DNA from: an uncultured Bacteroidota bacterium
GTDB lineage: Bacteria > Bacteroidota > Bacteroidia > Chitinophagales > LD1
NCBI GenBank assembly: GCA_903861145.1
Contig: CAIOTH010000115.1
Coordinates: 1-42,227, forward strand
Length of the DNA: 42,227 nucleotides
Direction of reading: 5' to 3'
Shown here: piece by piece, positions 2-34,717 of the stretch
Position numbering within the stretch: position 1 is the stretch's first letter
Layout: each line of letters begins with the position of its first letter
Program-made: the position numbers and the translations under genes
The notes under the pieces: model-generated
What the model was told of the DNA's origin: nothing
The model's database searches: none
Seen by the model: only the letters and a program-made list of their open reading frames with translations

Positions 2-3000
2 GCGGGTAAACCTGTTATTAGCCAGGTTAACCGTTTAACCTGTAGCACTTACATGATTGTAGGCCACGGCTTTAACGGTATTAGCGAAGGCTCGGCGTTT
101 GGCGATGAAAATGAGTGCGATAGCAACTACCCTTTATTCCGATTTACACAGGGTAATAAAGTTTATTACTCGCGCAGCTATAACTGGAATAGCACCGGTG
201 TAGCGCGTGGCCTTAAAGCCGATACCGCCTATTTAACCCTACCAACAAACATGGCCAGCGGTACCTATTATATGTATGCAGTTGCCAATGGTATTGCATC
301 TGATTCACTGCTGTTTACCGATTCGGTAGCATCATTAAGCAGTTCGTTAACTCCACCGGCAGTTTGTAGCGGTTCGGCCTTTACTTATACCCCAACCAGC
401 GGCACACCGGGTGCAACCTTTAGCTGGACCCGCCCTGCGGTAACCGGCATTAGCAATGCAGCCATTACTACAGCACAAACAAGTAACCCTAACGAAGTAC
501 TGGTAAACACTACTTCGGCACCAATAACTGTAACTTATGCGTATTCTGTAACCGGCTCGGGTTGTACTAATGATATAAACGTGCTGGTAGTTATAAATCC
601 AAAACCTACAGCGGGCTTCTCGGGTTTCCCATTAACGGCCTGCGCTTTACCTGATTCAGTAGCGTTTACCAATACCACGGTAGCAGGTACCAGCTATGTT
701 TGGAGCTTCGGCGATAACAGCACCAGTGCCGCCATTAACCCTGTGCATATTTATACAACGGCATCTACCTACAGCGTAAAACTGGTAGCCCGTAGCGCCT
801 GCGGTGCCGATTCAATAACACTATCAAACTATGTAGCTATAACTCCGCCATCGGCACCAACGGTAACATCGCCGGTTAATATTAGCTGCGGTGGCGTTGC
901 TACTTTAACTGCTACCGGTACCGATACCCTTAAATGGTTTAGCCAGCCAAGTGGAGGCAATGTATTAGGCACCGGCACCAGTTTTATAACCGGCGCGTTA
1001 AGCACCAACACTACTTATTATGTTGAAACTTACGCAGCGCCTACGGCATCTTATTGTCCGCCGCTAAGCGATGCAATTGGAGCAGGAAGCAACTTTACAG
1101 GCGCCAATTACCATGGCGAAGTATTTAATGTAAATCAAAATTGCACCCTTGTTTCGGTGCTGGTATATTCGGGTGCAGCGGGTAACCGCACCATTACTTT
1201 AATGGATGCATCGAACAACGTATTACAAAGTGCAGTTGTAAATATTCCCAACGGCACAAGCACGGTAACACTTAATTTCCCGCTAACAGTTGGTACCGGT
1301 TACCAGCTGGGTACCGGCGATAACGTAACTGCGGCCAATCTTTACCGCAATACCGCCGGCGCAGCCTTCCCTTATAACGACCCTAGTGGCTTTGTTACCA
1401 TAACCGGTAATGATATACCCGATAACGTTCACTACTATTATTTCTACGATTGGAAATTACAGGGTGCTGCCTGCGTAAGTGCACGCACACCGGTGGCAGT
1501 TAACATTACCAACGGCTTATCGTTAACCGCAAACGTTACCAATGTAGCGTGCAGCGGCGGCGCTAACGGCTCGGCAGTGCTTACGCCTACCGGCGGAACA
1601 CCGTCTTACACTTATAGCTGGAGCAACGGCCAAACAACCGGCACCTTAACCAATGTTGCTGCGGCTACTTATACAGTTACCGTGCACGATGCTTCCGGCT
1701 GCTCAGGCACGGCCAGCGAAGCTGTTTCGCAACCAAATGCATTAAACGTTTCGGTTACACCGGTTAACGCATCATGCGGTGCAAGCACCGGTAGTGCAAC
1801 AACTTCGGTTACCGGCGGCACAAGTGCATACACTTACTCATGGAGCACAACGGCTACTACATCAGGTGTTACCGGTTTAGCACCTAATACTTATCATTTA
1901 ACGGTTACCGATGCACATAGCTGCACGGCAACGGCACAGGCTGTTATCAGCAATTCATCAAGCCTTACTTTAACAGCAACGGGTATACCTGCATTTTGCC
2001 ATGGCACAGCAAGCGGCAGTGCTAACGTAAGTGTAACCGGCAGCACAGGTTCAATTACTTATAGCTGGAGCAACGGTGGCACTATTGCTTCTATTAACAA
2101 TGTACCTGCCGGTTCATATTCCGTAACCGTAGCTGACGGCGGCGGTTGTTCGGGCACGGCAAGTGCAACAATAACCGATGCAACGGCCATAAACCTTTCG
2201 GTTACATCTGTAAACAGTGGATGTGGTTCGCCAAACGGCAGTGCTAGTGCAACCGTAACAGGTGGCGCAGGCGGATATACTTATAGCTGGACAGGCGGTG
2301 CTACCACCAATGCCATAACCAGCCTATCGGCCAGCACTTATAATGTAACTGTAACCGATAACAATTTATGCAGTGTTACTTCATCGGCTACTATCACTAA
2401 CTCAGGTGCACTTAACATCAGTACCAGCAGCACCCCAACAAGTTGCAGTGGCGGTGCATCGGGTAGTGCGGCAGCTACTATAAATGGTGGCACCTCACCG
2501 TTTACCTATTCATGGTCTAACGGTAACACAACAGCTTCAATAAGCAATGTGGTGGCTGCTACGTACCAGGTAACTGTTGCAGATAATGCAAGTTGCTCGG
2601 GCACGGCTTCGGCGGTAGTTGCTGCGGGCACACCATTAAATACCAATACAAACACAACCAACATTAACTGCTATAGCGCAGCCAATGGTATAGCTTCGGT
2701 AAATGTAAGCAGTGGCACATCGCCTTACCAGTATGCATGGAACACCGGTGCTACCACAGCTACAATTACCAGCCTTGATGCCAACGATTATTACGTTACC
2801 GTTACCGATGGCAACAACTGCGTGGCTATTGACACCGTAACTATTACACAACCCGATGCCATTACCATATTTGTAACGGCAACTCCGGTATCGTGCGCAG
2901 GCTTAACAAATGGCCGTGCTACGGTGCATGCCACCGGTGGTACCCCAAATTACAGTTACTTATGGTCTAATAGTACAACCAGCCTTTCTATTATTAACCT

Positions 3001-3793
3001 GGTTGCCGGCACCTACTCAATTACTTTAACTGATAATAACCTGTGCACCGCATCGGCAAGTTTTGATATTACTAACCCGGTGCCAATTAGCGGACTGGCA
3101 ACACCAACAAACGATTCGTGCAACGCGGGTAGCGATGGCAGCATTATTTTATTACCAGTTGGCGGATCAGCGCCTTATACCTATAGCTGGAGCAACGGCA
3201 GCACCACCGCCAATATCAGCGCGCTGCCTTCGGGCGTTTACACGGTTACAATTACCGATAACGTTAATTGTACGGGTACAAATACAACTACTATTACTGC
3301 GCCAAGCGCGCTTACGGCATCAACAAGCGCAACCGGTGCCAGCAGTGGCCAGGCTAATGGTACTGCAACTGTAACCCCTGCGGGCGGAACAGCACCGTAC
3401 ACAGCAATATGGTCTAACCAACAAACGGGTACTACTATTACCGGTTTGGCAATTGGCATTTACACCGTAACCGTAACCGATGCTAACGGTTGCCAAACCA
3501 CCTCTACAGTAACGGTAGGCCCGGTTGGTATTGCAGAGGTTAGCGATGAGCTTACGTTTACTATTTATCCTAACCCGGCTAAAACGCAGGTTGCTGTAGC
3601 CGCTACTAATTTGGATAAAGAAACAACCCTGGTGTTAGAAGACATTTTGGGACAAACACTTATTACCAGGAACATAGGCACAACCAGCACACCGGTTATA
3701 TTGAACATTGCCGAGTTTGCTGGTGGTGTTTATTTTGTTGAATTAATACAAGACGGTAAAAAAGCAGTTAAGAAACTGGTGATTAACCGTTAG
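2..3793 (+). CDS. T9SS-secreted SprB-repeat surface protein (5' partial)
   Basis: The reading frame is open from base 2, before the first ATG at 53, so the gene begins outside the window. The first ~90 visible residues (FNGISEGSAFGDE, NYPLFRFT, YYMYAVANGIAS) resemble the C-terminal beta domain of galactose-oxidase/kelch-like secreted proteins. Counting from the ATG at 53, next come a PKD domain (about 183-265, with YVWSFGDNST), an Ig-like CHU-associated domain (about 268-330), a Cys-bounded beta domain, nine SprB-type repeats (about 489-1156) and a type A T9SS sorting domain (FTIYPNPAKTQ to the end). SprB repeats are known from gliding adhesins and large Bacteroidota surface proteins. The role is probably an adhesin or extracellular scaffold exported through the outer membrane. 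The gene is followed by a palindrome and a strong terminator. Substrate or partner cannot be told. Confidence 0.9.
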   Translation, partial: AGKPVISQVNRLTCSTYMIVGHGFNGISEGSAFGDENECDSNYPLFRFTQGNKVYYSRSYNWNSTGVARGLKADTAYLTLPTNMASGTYYMYAVANGIASDSLLFTDSVASLSSSLTPPAVCSGSAFTYTPTSGTPGATFSWTRPAVTGISNAAITTAQTSNPNEVLVNTTSAPITVTYAYSVTGSGCTNDINVLVVINPKPTAGFSGFPLTACALPDSVAFTNTTVAGTSYVWSFGDNSTSAAINPVHIYTTASTYSVKLVARSACGADSITLSNYVAITPPSAPTVTSPVNISCGGVATLTATGTDTLKWFSQPSGGNVLGTGTSFITGALSTNTTYYVETYAAPTASYCPPLSDAIGAGSNFTGANYHGEVFNVNQNCTLVSVLVYSGAAGNRTITLMDASNNVLQSAVVNIPNGTSTVTLNFPLTVGTGYQLGTGDNVTAANLYRNTAGAAFPYNDPSGFVTITGNDIPDNVHYYYFYDWKLQGAACVSARTPVAVNITNGLSLTANVTNVACSGGANGSAVLTPTGGTPSYTYSWSNGQTTGTLTNVAAATYTVTVHDASGCSGTASEAVSQPNALNVSVTPVNASCGASTGSATTSVTGGTSAYTYSWSTTATTSGVTGLAPNTYHLTVTDAHSCTATAQAVISNSSSLTLTATGIPAFCHGTASGSANVSVTGSTGSITYSWSNGGTIASINNVPAGSYSVTVADGGGCSGTASATITDATAINLSVTSVNSGCGSPNGSASATVTGGAGGYTYSWTGGATTNAITSLSASTYNVTVTDNNLCSVTSSATITNSGALNISTSSTPTSCSGGASGSAAATINGGTSPFTYSWSNGNTTASISNVVAATYQVTVADNASCSGTASAVVAAGTPLNTNTNTTNINCYSAANGIASVNVSSGTSPYQYAWNTGATTATITSLDANDYYVTVTDGNNCVAIDTVTITQPDAITIFVTATPVSCAGLTNGRATVHATGGTPNYSYLWSNSTTSLSIINLVAGTYSITLTDNNLCTASASFDITNPVPISGLATPTNDSCNAGSDGSIILLPVGGSAPYTYSWSNGSTTANISALPSGVYTVTITDNVNCTGTNTTTITAPSALTASTSATGASSGQANGTATVTPAGGTAPYTAIWSNQQTGTTITGLAIGIYTVTVTDANGCQTTSTVTVGPVGIAEVSDELTFTIYPNPAKTQVAVAATNLDKETTLVLEDILGQTLITRNIGTTSTPVILNIAEFAGGVYFVELIQDGKKAVKKLVINR
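1517..3520 (+). repeat. Nine tandem SprB-type repeats of ~73-75 residues
   Basis: Each unit has the pattern C-x(2-4)-NGSA...GGT-PYTYSWSNG-x-TT-x-I-x-LxxGTYxVTVTDxxxC. The units are divergent at DNA level, so they are old protein repeats and not recent duplications. Most units have one Cys near the start and one near the end. The ninth lacks the first (GASSGQANG) but keeps the second. Confidence 0.85.
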
Positions 3794-9904: not shown

Positions 9905-11896
9905 TTACTTCTTCCCGTTTTTCAAGGCATCAATTTCCTTTTTCATTTCATCGTTTTGGCGGGCTAACTCCTGCACGGCTTTTACCAGTGGCATTACAAA
10001 ATCCGAGTAACGAAGGGTATACAACTCATCGGCATTAGCCGGTACCTGCACACCGCTAAAATCGTAGCCGCTTTCTTTGGCGGCCTTTTCCACTTCCTGC
10101 GCCAAAAAGCCGGTAACCTTCATCTTTTCAATATCATATTTACTATCCCAGGTAGTGGCATCTTTATTAGTGCCTTTGTAAATTATATCGTTCTCTCTAT
10201 GAATATTGAGGTTATAAGTAACAGGGCGAAGTTTTGTAATAAACGAAAGCCCCGGCACATCGGCCTGCACATTGTCTTTAATGCGCTCATCGCTATAAGT
10301 GCCCCAGGTAACTTGTCCGCCAATCCAATAAATGCTGCTGTTACCAATTTCAATGCGGTTGGATACACTACTATTCGTTCCGGATAAATTACCTATGCAA
10401 ACGGTGTTATCTAAATTGTTGCTGGCAAAAAATGCCTGATCGCCTACCGCTACGTTATGGCTTCCGCTTACATTATTGGTCATGGCCGAAAAACCGAATG
10501 CGGCGTTACCGGCACCGGTTACATTTTGAAAAAGTGCCTGTTCTCCGTATGCACTATTATACGATCCGGTAGTTCTTGCAGCCGCCTGATACCCCCCTGC
10601 TGTATTATAGAATCCCGTGGTGTTAGCTGCCAGGGCGCCATATCCTTCAGCGGTATTATTATATCCACTGGTATTACCGGCAAGGGCCAAATTTCCATTG
10701 GCCGTATTGCTATTGCCGGTAGTGTTTGCCTGCAATGCCTGGTAGCCAACAGCAGTGTTACCACTACCCGAGGTATTTAAATAAAGTGCACTGTCGCCGC
10801 TGGCGGTATTAGCACTACCCGTGTTATTTGCATAAAGTGCAAACATTCCATTTGCCGCGTTACCGTTACCGGTGGTATTAAAAGCAAGTGCATCGTAACC
10901 GCCGGCGGTGTTGTTACTACCTGTTGAATTGAAATAGAGGCTGCTAAATCCGGTAGCCGTGTTGTTGCTGCCGGTGGTGTTATTATTAAGTGCCAGGCCA
11001 CCAACGGCTGAGTTTTGGGTGCCGGTGGTATTGTTATAAAGCGCGTAGTAACCATGCGCCGTATTATTACTGCCTGTAGTGTTGAAATAAAGAGCACTGG
11101 CACCGACGGCGGTACTGTTGCTGCCGGTGGTATTTGAGTAAAGCGATGAATAACCGGCCGCCGTATTACTACCGCCGGTGGTGTTAGCGTATAGGGCAAC
11201 TGCCCCTACGGCAGTATTGCTAAGGCCGGTACTGTTAAGGTATAAGGCGTAAGCCCCGGTTGATGTATTGTTAGTACCCGTAGTATTTGTATACAGCGAA
11301 GAGTTACCCGTTGCAGTATTATTACTGCCCGATGTGTTACCGAGAAGAGCCGCATATCCATTGGCAGTGTTGTAGTTACCGGTGCTGTTTGTGTTAAGGG
11401 CGTCGTAACCCAATGCAGTATTCTGATATCCGGTGGTATTGCTTCTAAGCGTTCCCGAACCGTTTGCAGTATTGCCATAACCTGTAGTGTTATCGTACAT
11501 AGCCTGGTAACCATACGCGGTATTTTGATTGGCTGTGGTGTTTGTGTATAACGCCTGGTAACCACCGGCAGTATTACCATAACCGGTGGTGTTGCTATAG
11601 CCCGCACCCCCACCCGAAAACGTATTGGAGATGCCGCCACCGCCACCATTATTTGCATGCCCGGCATTAACGCCTACAAAAGCGTTGCTGGCATCATCTG
11701 AATTAAGCCAAAGAACATCAGTACCACTGCTATTGCGTAATTTGATAAGAGGGCTGGCATTGGTTTGAGTGCTATAACCATCAACCACCAATTGTGCCGT
11801 ATTTGCCGAGCCCGTAACATGTAGCTTGCCCGCGGGCACACTGTTGTTAATACCCACATTGCCACCGTTGTTGTAAATGTTGCTACTGTTTACCAC
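9905..11896 (-). CDS. C-terminal part of an S74 tail-fibre-like protein (split by amber codon)
   Basis: 663 residues from a GTG directly after an in-frame TAG. The first residues (VVNSSNIYNNGGNVGI...PAGKLHV) are the linker normally found inside, not at the start of, Bacteroidota S74 fibre proteins. Then come 24 tandem 17-residue units (10409-11626) expected to form a beta-roll/YadA-head-like stalk. A peptidase S74 chaperone domain begins near residue 533 with SDERIKDN; in autoprocessing S74 proteins this Ser and Lys form the cleavage dyad. The domain ends in a coiled coil (VQELARQNDEMKKEIDALK) that normally drives trimerisation. There is no signal peptide, so this fragment should not be exported on its own. 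It is almost certainly the 3' part of the gene whose 5' part lies at 11897-12640. Confidence 0.88.
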   Translation of the reverse strand: MVNSSNIYNNGGNVGINNSVPAGKLHVTGSANTAQLVVDGYSTQTNASPLIKLRNSSGTDVLWLNSDDASNAFVGVNAGHANNGGGGGISNTFSGGGAGYSNTTGYGNTAGGYQALYTNTTANQNTAYGYQAMYDNTTGYGNTANGSGTLRSNTTGYQNTALGYDALNTNSTGNYNTANGYAALLGNTSGSNNTATGNSSLYTNTTGTNNTSTGAYALYLNSTGLSNTAVGAVALYANTTGGSNTAAGYSSLYSNTTGSNSTAVGASALYFNTTGSNNTAHGYYALYNNTTGTQNSAVGGLALNNNTTGSNNTATGFSSLYFNSTGSNNTAGGYDALAFNTTGNGNAANGMFALYANNTGSANTASGDSALYLNTSGSGNTAVGYQALQANTTGNSNTANGNLALAGNTSGYNNTAEGYGALAANTTGFYNTAGGYQAAARTTGSYNSAYGEQALFQNVTGAGNAAFGFSAMTNNVSGSHNVAVGDQAFFASNNLDNTVCIGNLSGTNSSVSNRIEIGNSSIYWIGGQVTWGTYSDERIKDNVQADVPGLSFITKLRPVTYNLNIHRENDIIYKGTNKDATTWDSKYDIEKMKVTGFLAQEVEKAAKESGYDFSGVQVPANADELYTLRYSDFVMPLVKAVQELARQNDEMKKEIDALKNGKK
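10409..11626 (-). repeat. 24 tandem 51-bp (17-residue) coding repeats
   Basis: Unit pattern NTAxGxxALxxNTTGxx. I count 24 units over 406 residues; two units are 16 residues long (NTAGGYQAAARTTGSY and NVAVGDQAFFASNNLD). The strict period with A/T/G/N-rich codons leaves long stop-free frames on the other strand. Such arrays can gain or lose units by recombination. Confidence 0.9.
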
Positions 11897-11899
11897 CTA
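11897..11899 (-). other. In-frame TAG replacing an expected TGG
   Basis: The minus-strand codons around it read N-G-S-S-TAG-V-V-N-S-S-N. In this protein class the linker usually reads NGSSWVVNSSNI, so TAG stands where TGG (Trp) is expected. Reading frame is unchanged on both sides. TAG is used as a normal stop elsewhere in the window (for example at 3793), so reassignment is unlikely. Confidence 0.8.
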
Positions 11900-12640
11900 C
11901 GATGAACCGTTCCAGTAAGGGGTGTTACCCGCTGCTGCGCCGTTAGGCAATAAACCGTTTGTGCCGGTTGCACCTGTGGCTCCGGCTGTGCCTGCACTCC
12001 CTGTAGGCCCCGTGGGACCGGTTGCGCCGCCACCAACACCTGTAACACCGTTGTTACCGGTTACGCCGGTTGGCCCTGTTGCACCGGTTGCTCCGCCGCC
12101 GGCACCTGTGGCGCCATTATTGCCTGTGGGCCCTGTGGGCCCGTTATTTCCTGTTGAGCCTGCTGCGCCGTTATTACCGGTTGCACCCGCCGTTCCGTTG
12201 GCACCGGTAGGCCCTGTGGCACCGGTAGCGCCCGCCGGCGAATTAGCAGCATATAAAGCATAAGGCACGCTTATAAGTTGGGCAGTGCCCATGTTAACGT
12301 AATTACTGCCACCGGTTGGGTCCAACTCCACCTGTAAGTACTTTCCGCCGCCGGTGCTCCAGTCAATACCGGTAAATGTGCCTTGTAAAACGGTACCGGT
12401 GCCTACCTGCGTGGTAAACAAGCCAAATGCATTGGTGGTAGCGTTATCGCTTTCTCTATAAACTATTGTGCCGCCTACGCTTCCATCATGAATGGTAAAG
12501 CGGACGCTTACCGCCTGGTTTTGCAGTACTGCGCCGGCATTATTGCGGGCAACAGCCTGGTAATTTAATGCCTGTGGAACCTGTGCCGTAACAAAAAACG
12601 CTACCAGCATTACCAACGTAGGGAGAAGAATTTTTTTCAT
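11897..12640 (-). CDS. N-terminal part of collagen-like/S74 fibre protein (truncated by TAG)
   Basis: The ATG at 12640 gives a clean signal peptide ([19 protein letters not shown]); a TTG at 12661 is a weaker choice. A ~115-residue beta domain follows ([18 protein letters not shown] ... [11 protein letters not shown]), typical of the N-terminus of Bacteroidota S74 proteins. About 85 residues of collagen-like Gly-X-Y triplets follow (GATGPTG, GNNGAAG, GPTGPTG), interrupted by GAGGGA and GVGGGA. The product ends NTPYWNGSS at an in-frame TAG. With the downstream 663 residues the intact protein would be about 910 residues. If read as it stands, the fragment is a secreted protein with a collagen-like tail but without stalk or chaperone domain. 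Confidence 0.85.
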
Positions 12641-12968: not shown

Positions 12969-13772
12969 ATGAGCACTAAAGACACTTTAGGATATCGCAA
13001 TCTCCCCCTGCACAAAATACCGGAGTACTGGGCTAGTTTTAAACCTACCGAGAACATAACTGCAACAAAAGAAGAGGAGTGGAAAACAAAGGTGGAGTTT
13101 CTCGATAATCTATCAGTATACAAAAATGTTGTAATTTATTTAATAAACACTTACACCAATAGGTTTGTATACATTAACGACAAAACCAACATTTTGGCCG
13201 GGCTATCGCCCGAACTATTTATGGCCGAAAACGGGTTGGAGTTTTCCATTTCCCGGCTTCATCCCGACCATGTTGAGGCGTCATTAAAACTAACACAAAT
13301 AGGGCTTAATTTTTATGCCGATAGCAGTTTGAGCGATTATAAAAACATTGCACTCAACCAAAACTACTTGTATAAAAACGGTCAGGACGAATATGTGCAA
13401 TTATTGCAACAGGGCATGATTTTAGAAGTAGATGACAGCGGCAGACCCGCATTATCTATCTGGCTTGTTCATAAAGTTGGCCATATTAAAAAAGCAGATT
13501 CGGCGGCGTTGGTAATCACCTCTCCTTCGGTTGTGCAACTTTATAGCTATAACCGCCAGCAAAACATTATTGAGCCACCCAAAACATTTTCTGACCAGGA
13601 AAAGAAAATAATATCCTTGCTGGCACAGGGCGATGACACTAAAACTATAGCCGAAAAATTATTTATAAGTGCGCATACTGTTGATACCCACAGGCGCAAC
13701 CTTATCAAAAAAGCCGAATGCCGCGATACTACCGGCGTAGTTGATTTTGCCAGGCTTATCAATTTAATATAG
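12969..13772 (+). CDS. LuxR-type transcriptional regulator with PAS-like sensor half
   Basis: 267 residues. The last ~60 (FSDQEKKIISLLAQGDDTKTIAEKLFISAHTVDTHRRNLIKK) form a LuxR/GerE helix-turn-helix with the usual S-x-(H/N)-T-V-x-x-H recognition helix. The N-terminal ~200 residues (NVVIYLINTYTNRFVYIND, SRLHPDHVEA, LVHKVGHI) look like a PAS-fold sensor as found in Bacteroidota one-component LuxR regulators. There is no receiver domain, so it would sense a ligand directly. It is divergent from the S74 fibre gene and 110 bases upstream of a small secreted protein; control of either is plausible but not shown. Confidence 0.85.
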   Translation: MSTKDTLGYRNLPLHKIPEYWASFKPTENITATKEEEWKTKVEFLDNLSVYKNVVIYLINTYTNRFVYINDKTNILAGLSPELFMAENGLEFSISRLHPDHVEASLKLTQIGLNFYADSSLSDYKNIALNQNYLYKNGQDEYVQLLQQGMILEVDDSGRPALSIWLVHKVGHIKKADSAALVITSPSVVQLYSYNRQQNIIEPPKTFSDQEKKIISLLAQGDDTKTIAEKLFISAHTVDTHRRNLIKKAECRDTTGVVDFARLINLI

Positions 13773-33370: not shown

Positions 33371-34717
33371 ATGAAAAAAAGCAAAACCAGGTTTTTTGTG
33401 GCAACGCTGTTGCTGGTATTTACCTTCGGGCTATACAACTGCACCCGGCACGACCAGGCTTTAAATGTTGCAGCCCAAAACGGCACGGTGCTTACATCCA
33501 TTAAAACCGCAACCGCACCGGCCTTTGTTGCCGGCGGTGCCAGCTGGAGTGGCGCTAATGCAGCTTTGTGGAAAAACGCACCGGTGCTTAACGTTACGGC
33601 CACCGTGCCCGATGTTGAAGGAACCAATAATGCCTTTAACGGTTTTATTGGCAACAGCACTGCGGTTACCATGCAGTCGATGTATGACGCCAATAACGTT
33701 TACTTTTTGATTTCGTGGAAGGCGGCACAGCCTAATATGGAAAGCTCGCCATGGTTTTTTGACCCGGTTGCCAAACAATGGCTACAAGCCGATGCACAGC
33801 CTACCTATGATGTAAACGGCCAGTTAACCCAACGCGGTTTTGGTACCGATGGATTTATGATGTTGTTTAACATCAACAATTCGTGCGCCGATTTTACCAC
33901 TCAATCGTGCTACGGCGCGTGCCACACCGGTGTACCAACCATGGTTGTTGACCCCGCTACCGGCCTTATAAGCAGCACCACTACCAACGTTATGCGCACC
34001 AATGGCCCCGGCGAAAAACTGGATTGCTGGATGGCCCGCATGTCGAACGTACCGCAAACGGGCCAGCTAATGGATTATTATGTTGACTATAACGGAGGCG
34101 TAACCACCGGTGATGGAATTGAAGCCGACCAAACTATATCCGACGGTGCAAACCCGCCCAACTATTCATCCAACCAAGCAACCAACGGCACCGGTGGCAT
34201 GCCCAACATACAAACCTTAACCATAACCGGCACCAGCCAAACCGAGGATGTACCACTTTGGGTAAAACCGGCAGGTTCAACCTATACCAATGCAGCCCTG
34301 CTACCAAGCGATACCACCGGCGCGGCACTATTGGTTATAGCGGTTGATGCAAATGGTGTGCTAACCCTAAAAGGCGGCACCACCCTAAACCCTAACACCA
34401 ACACCACTTACCAAAGCGTAGGCACCGGTATTGGCAATAACGACCAAACCAGTTGGATACCGGGCCAGATTGTAGCGCCCTTTACCGGTGGCGAAGGTGA
34501 TGTAACCGCTAATGCATATTGGACCGGCAGCGGCTGGCAAATGATGCTTAAGCGCCCCTTAAAAACCGCCGATGTTTTAGAGCAGGACGTAGATTTTTCG
34601 AAGCTGGATAAAGTGCAGTTTGGTGTTGCGGTAATGTTTACTGCACCGGGTTCAATTAACGCAGCCGATAACCAGCATGCTGTGGCACCGGGGTTAACGT
34701 TAACATTCCAAAAGTAA
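33371..34717 (+). CDS. Ethylbenzene-dehydrogenase-like haem lipoprotein
   Basis: 448 residues with a lipoprotein signal (LLVFTFGLYNC-TRHD). The fold landmarks of the EB_dh/DMSO-reductase haem-binding subunit are present: WSGANAALWKNAPVLNV near the start, MYDANNVYFLISWK, and the late MLKRPLKTADVLEQDVDFSKLDKVQFGVAVMF. A haem c site C180-YGA-C184-H185 has three residues between the Cys, a CX3CH form that I recall in this family but which differs from the usual CxxCH. A periplasmic or surface electron-transfer role is likely. No catalytic molybdenum subunit is next to it. A strong terminator follows. Confidence 0.82.
   Translation: MKKSKTRFFVATLLLVFTFGLYNCTRHDQALNVAAQNGTVLTSIKTATAPAFVAGGASWSGANAALWKNAPVLNVTATVPDVEGTNNAFNGFIGNSTAVTMQSMYDANNVYFLISWKAAQPNMESSPWFFDPVAKQWLQADAQPTYDVNGQLTQRGFGTDGFMMLFNINNSCADFTTQSCYGACHTGVPTMVVDPATGLISSTTTNVMRTNGPGEKLDCWMARMSNVPQTGQLMDYYVDYNGGVTTGDGIEADQTISDGANPPNYSSNQATNGTGGMPNIQTLTITGTSQTEDVPLWVKPAGSTYTNAALLPSDTTGAALLVIAVDANGVLTLKGGTTLNPNTNTTYQSVGTGIGNNDQTSWIPGQIVAPFTGGEGDVTANAYWTGSGWQMMLKRPLKTADVLEQDVDFSKLDKVQFGVAVMFTAPGSINAADNQHAVAPGLTLTFQK

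What the first reader, a model, noticed from the sequence alone, without database searches (positions are those of the whole stretch)
11897..11899. In-frame amber codon splits a collagen-like/S74 fibre gene
The two reading frames on either side of a single TAG are in phase, and the junction reads NGSS-TAG-VVNSSN where this protein class normally has NGSSWVVNSSN. One G-to-A change turns TGG into TAG. All 24 repeats and the chaperone domain downstream remain open, so the loss is recent, a sequencing error, or a programmed readthrough or suppression site that yields a short secreted collagen-like form and a full fibre.
Basis: partly seen in the sequence, partly recalled or inferred. Interest (0 to 1): 0.72.

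Follow-up and report, generated by a model that had tools for sequence, protein, structure and literature searches.

The report
Nonsense-broken copy of bacterial surface-fibre gene
One member of a large family of secreted collagen-like fibre genes in a bacterium carries a single premature stop codon; similar single breaks occur in other members, so this looks like ordinary gene inactivation rather than a special decoding signal.

Summary
On the minus strand, TAG at 11897-11899 is codon 248 of a frame that starts at ATG 12640 and stays open for 663 codons after the stop. Of 49 homologous junctions held that carry the (Y/F)W(N/D/S)G motif, 48 have Trp (TGG) there; only the window has a stop. 27 single open frames match both halves, so this was most likely one gene.

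Nothing found supports programmed readthrough. RF1 is intact. No CUA-anticodon tRNA was found. TAG ends 9 of 32 family frames in this genome, 7 of them not flagged as broken. In a census of this gene family, 10 of 138 judged frames are broken, by lesions of mixed kind at unrelated places: 3 in-frame TAG (this one included), 1 in-frame TGA, 6 frameshifts. Five of the 10 are in this genome.

Best reading: a recent, unprogrammed nonsense mutation in one of about 36 paralogues, fixed or segregating. A consensus error cannot be excluded without reads. Ordinary; low interest.

The parts
11900..12640 (-). First half of the split gene: hydrophobic, signal-peptide-like start ([20 protein letters not shown]), N-terminal domain shared by the family, collagen-like G-X-Y tract; 247 codons
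   Evidence: Pfam Collagen E 3.4e-10; 36 distinct family N-termini in this genome. Signal peptide judged by eye
11897..11899 (-). In-frame TAG where 48 of 48 other motif-bearing junctions have TGG (Trp)
9905..11896 (-). Second half, same phase: 663 codons, about 24 repeats of about 17 residues, C-terminal Peptidase_S74 (chaperone of endosialidase), TAA stop
   Evidence: S74 E 6.9e-8
11894..11896 (-). GTG directly after the TAG, a possible place for re-initiation; a product from it would lack the signal-like N-terminus
   Evidence: sequence only

Best explanation
A single unprogrammed nonsense mutation has inactivated one member of a large, fast-changing family of secreted collagen-like/S74 fibre proteins in a Bacteroidota-type bacterium. 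Shown: one frame with one in-frame TAG, Trp in the motif-bearing relatives, no further stop downstream, other family members broken in unrelated ways. Inferred: termination leaves a 247-residue secreted stub with the N-terminal domain and collagen tract but without the repeat shaft and the S74 chaperone, so no mature fibre forms. The allele is recent, or is one variant in a mixed population, and loss is tolerated because some 35 paralogues (several also broken) remain.
For: Trp TGG at the position in 48 of 48 other motif-bearing junctions. 27 single frames match both halves at E 1e-10 or better, though many over only part of the second half and 4 run off the stretch held. RF1 intact, 358 residues. 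No CUA tRNA: ARAGORN named a gene at 32 of 33 tRNA matches, none CUA, and none was found at 4 sites matching an anticodon-plus-T-arm pattern. TAG ends 9 of 32 family frames that end in a stop in this genome, 7 of them not flagged as broken. Census: 10 of 138 judged frames broken, 3 in-frame TAG, 1 in-frame TGA, 6 frameshifts, plus one frameshift in the N-terminal domain seen separately (L042). No second stop in 663 codons: 5% chance at about 0.04-0.06 neutral substitutions per site, 50% at about 0.010-0.015, stops alone considered, so the lesion is young if neutral.
Against: The open downstream frame also fits continued use by some readthrough. Three of the 4 in-frame stops in the family are TAG, which is too few to mean anything but does not speak against suppression. 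No reads or second strain show that the TAG is real in the organism. The tRNA search scored 150 of 293 candidates and lacks expected tRNAs, so absence of a suppressor is not absolute. The control (16 TonB-receptor matches in this genome, none with a stop inside) is too small to show that this family is broken more often than others. The excess in this genome (5 of 32 against 6 of 109 with L042 counted in, p = 0.12) is not significant. Separate-gene arrangements of related modules exist in the family.
Confidence: 0.79

Rival explanations
1. Assembly or consensus error, or a minority allele called as consensus; the gene is intact in most cells.
For: Draft assembly of 174 contigs. Several members of the same repetitive family look broken in this genome: C115, C100, C46, C9, C119.
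Against: A single substitution outside the repeat arrays is not a typical assembly fault (general knowledge). 16 TonB-receptor matches in the same genome show no stop inside, a small control.
Confidence: 0.14
2. Programmed readthrough or suppression of TAG makes a short collagen form and a full fibre.
For: Frame intact downstream. Readthrough of in-frame stops in bacteria has been argued from conservation and dN/dS (PMC7918605, abstract and section list seen). 3 of 4 in-frame stops in the census are TAG.
Against: Stop absent from the 48 other motif-bearing junctions. RF1 intact. No CUA tRNA found. The codons after the three TAGs differ, and frameshifts outnumber in-frame stops. No Rfam family reaches its gathering score in the window.
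Confidence: 0.03
3. Two cistrons: the second half is re-initiated at the GTG that follows the TAG.
For: GTG directly follows TAG. Elsewhere in the family six genes are followed by a separate gene matching inner parts of family proteins.
Against: Those six second genes have their own Met and signal-like start; the window's second half has none and would lose the collagen tract. The GTG is the codon that follows the conserved Trp, usually V or I in relatives. 27 single frames match both halves.
Confidence: 0.04

Closest known systems
Nonsense-type (single-lesion) bacterial pseudogene or segregating nonsense allele
   Same: One in-frame stop, the rest of the frame open, relatives with a sense codon, redundancy in the genome.
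   Different: Nothing seen that differs; fixation not tested.
Peptidase_S74 / chaperone-of-endosialidase fibre proteins (Pfam PF13884) with collagen-like tracts (PF01391)
   Same: Collagen tract, repeat shaft and S74-type end in one reading frame in relatives (an SDxRxK pattern near the end in 20 of the 27). S74 and collagen modules are also described, in different fibres, for extracellular contractile injection systems (PMC12923769, passages seen).
   Different: Signal-like N-terminus; no contractile-injection family among the Pfam hits of the 10 window proteins scanned (3 of the 10 had no hit); here interrupted by TAG.
Bacterial genes with in-frame stops proposed to be read through (Belinky et al. 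2021, PMC7918605, abstract and section list seen)
   Same: In-frame stop with an open continuation.
   Different: Their case rests on conservation and dN/dS below 1; here the stop is in one gene only and dN/dS was not measured, relatives being too distant.

Membership tests
Nonsense pseudogene / nonsense allele | Homologues have a sense codon at the stop | tested here: met
   48 of 48 other motif-bearing junctions have TGG
Nonsense pseudogene / nonsense allele | Both sides belong to one gene in relatives | tested here: met
   27 single open frames match both halves; 4 run off the stretch held and one (L238) is itself broken further on. Separate-gene arrangements also exist, with their own starts
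Nonsense pseudogene / nonsense allele | Stop present in the organism, not only in the assembly | not testable with these tools
Programmed readthrough / stop suppression | Stop and its context conserved across relatives | tested here: not met
   0 of 48
Programmed readthrough / stop suppression | CUA-anticodon tRNA or loss of RF1 | tested here: not met
   the tRNA list lacks some expected anticodons (for example Asp), so absence is not absolute
Programmed readthrough / stop suppression | Full-length product made | not testable with these tools
   needs proteomics or a reporter
Collagen-like / S74 fibre family | Collagen tract and C-terminal S74 domain | tested here: met
   Pfam hits above cut-off in the two halves

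The most novel reading that the evidence does not exclude
The collagen/S74 fibre family behaves like a set of contingency genes: members are repeatedly switched off by single reversible lesions (stops and frameshifts) and kept otherwise intact, so that each cell line displays a different subset of surface fibres; leaky readthrough of stops would add low-level display.
Probability: 0.06. Interest if true: 0.5.

Novelty: new member of a known kind. Interest (0 to 1): 0.12.

Why it matters
Mainly as annotation: the two ORFs are best read as one interrupted gene, and the short collagen ORF should not be taken for a designed short form. The side result, that about 7% of judged members of this family carry a single break, would matter only if read data showed on/off variation within populations.

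Tried and rejected
Programmed readthrough: no conserved stop, no CUA tRNA found, RF1 intact, TAG used as a normal terminator. TAG reassignment: rejected for the same reasons. TAG-only pattern in the family: first suggested by three in-frame TAGs (L138, L134, L147); dropped after the wider census added an in-frame TGA (L238) and six frameshifts. Two independent genes: such arrangements exist in relatives but the window lacks their features. Syntenic intact orthologue: not found; at E 1e-20 the LuxR neighbour has a relative in 1 of the 17 other genus genomes and the flavodoxin neighbour in 3 of 17, on different contigs where both occur. Same-species DNA in viral contigs: none. Papers, listings only unless said: one search found none holding 'collagen-like', 'endosialidase' and 'Bacteroidetes' together; some searches listed 2, 2, 3 and 8 papers, of which I opened two (PMC12923769, passages; PMC7918605, abstract and section list). 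Structure prediction was not used: it would not bear on the stop.

Limits of the census: one search counted 260 matches and listed only part of them; I fetched most but not all listed places. 'Broken' means a blastx match to other family members beginning within three bases after the stop; a further 14 genes had matches only further on: 8 are followed by another gene with the family N-terminus and 6 by a gene with its own signal-like start. N-terminal matches under 60 residues and the named records L081-L125 were left out. L042 was found broken separately and counts among the 29 that run off; one search's test counted it in and used 32 and 109 as totals. The named record L120 shows many frame changes, one of them right at this junction; it is counted neither in the census nor among the 48.

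Full report
What is there. The minus strand from 12640 to 9905 is one reading frame interrupted once, by TAG at 11899-11897. The first 247 codons encode a signal-like start, an N-terminal domain found in 36 distinct copies in this genome and a collagen-like tract (Pfam Collagen). The next 663 codons encode about 24 repeats of about 17 residues and a C-terminal S74 chaperone-of-endosialidase domain, and end in TAA.

What relatives show. Junctions were collected from this genome, its genus and named genomes and aligned to the window. In one search, 46 distinct alignments have Trp TGG at the stop position, 8 have another residue, 4 pieces give no residue at that position, and the window has TAG. 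With more loci in hand, 74 distinct places were examined: 50 have TGG, 18 have another residue, one has a gap, 4 pieces do not cover the position, and one, the window, has TAG. Those with another residue that were printed lack the WNG motif and align weakly around it. Of the 49 with the (Y/F)W(N/D/S)G motif, 48 have TGG and one, the window, TAG. In one search none of the other 65 matches contained a stop. One named record, L120, changes frame right at this junction, but it changes frame in many places. 27 single reading frames match both halves. L247, from another species of the genus, aligns over nearly the whole second half (residues 5-651, 45% identity, 658 columns) and has an S74-type motif near its end. 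The window gene was therefore most likely one gene.

Separate-gene arrangements. Six family genes are followed by a gene that matches inner parts of family proteins and starts with its own Met and signal-like stretch (L287, L240, L246, L221, L226, L313). The window differs: the second half has no signal-like start and continues the conserved junction motif in phase from the codon after the TAG.

Could the stop be decoded? RF1 (prfA) is present over its cut-off, and its frame is intact at 358 residues; the one TAA counted inside the match lies just before its start codon. Thirty-three tRNA matches were found, from 150 of 293 candidates scored. ARAGORN named a gene in 32 of them and none in the last, a weak match at a contig end; none is CUA. 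The set is not complete (no tRNA-Asp was seen), so a direct pattern for a TCTA anticodon loop followed by a T arm was run: 4 sites, fewer than its reversed control, of which one overlaps the known tRNA-Gln and three hold no tRNA by ARAGORN. TAG ends 9 of the 32 family frames that end in a stop in this genome; 7 of these are not flagged as broken. The neighbouring LuxR gene also ends in TAG (13770-13772). No Rfam family reaches its gathering score in the window. The three TAG contexts in the family differ after the stop.

How common are breaks? Among 170 distinct N-terminal domains (36 in this genome), 29 frames run off the stretch held and 141 end in a stop; 3 of the 141 had too little sequence after the stop to judge. 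Of the 138 judged, ten are followed within three bases by coding sequence that continues the family. In-frame stops: the window (TAG), C100 of this genome (L134, TAG), L147 (TAG) and L238 (TGA). Frame changes: L170, L324 and L230 of this genome, and L213, L185 and L214 of others. An eleventh, L042, is broken inside the N-terminal domain. So 5 of 31 judged in this genome and 5 of 107 elsewhere are broken. The test that I ran used 5 of 32 against 6 of 109 (all that end in a stop, L042 added) and gave p = 0.12. A small control, the TonB-receptor barrel family in this genome, gave 16 matches with no stop inside. It measures only the matched part and cannot prove a family-specific excess.

Age. A random substitution in the downstream half makes a stop with probability 0.024-0.034. 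No second stop is expected by chance half the time at about 0.010-0.015 neutral substitutions per site and 5% of the time at 0.04-0.06, indels not considered. Either the lesion is young or the second half is still selected; the first is simpler.

Conclusion. This is an ordinary, probably recent, single nonsense lesion in a redundant surface-fibre family, either fixed, segregating, or a consensus error; only reads can separate these. No evidence favours a programmed site. Functional consequences (a secreted stub, no fibre) are inferred from domain order and general knowledge of S74 chaperones (recalled), not shown.

Noticed in passing
L134 / L215 (contig C100 of this genome): A second collagen-like paralogue split by an in-frame TAG inside its collagen tract, with 432 codons open after it.
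   Followed up: partly
L170 / L133 (C46), L324 (C9), L230 (C119) of this genome: Three more paralogues with single frame changes followed by open family-like frames.
   Followed up: partly
L147, L238, L213, L185, L214, L042 (other species of the genus): Single-lesion members in other species; L147 has an in-frame TAG and L238 an in-frame TGA, the others frame changes.
   Followed up: partly
L287, L240, L246: Collagen-type family genes with alike C-termini (TDTP/TDKP ends) followed by a separate gene with its own signal-like start that matches inner parts of family proteins: a possible conserved gene pair.
   Followed up: partly
L120 (CP058707.1): A relative in a record titled as a chromosome shows many frame changes in one fibre gene region, possibly sequencing error.
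   Followed up: no
window 53-3793: A 1246-residue protein with nine SprB repeat stretches and a secretion-system C-terminal sorting domain.
   Followed up: no
window 33371-34717: A protein matching the Pfam ethylbenzene dehydrogenase family EB_dh.
   Followed up: no
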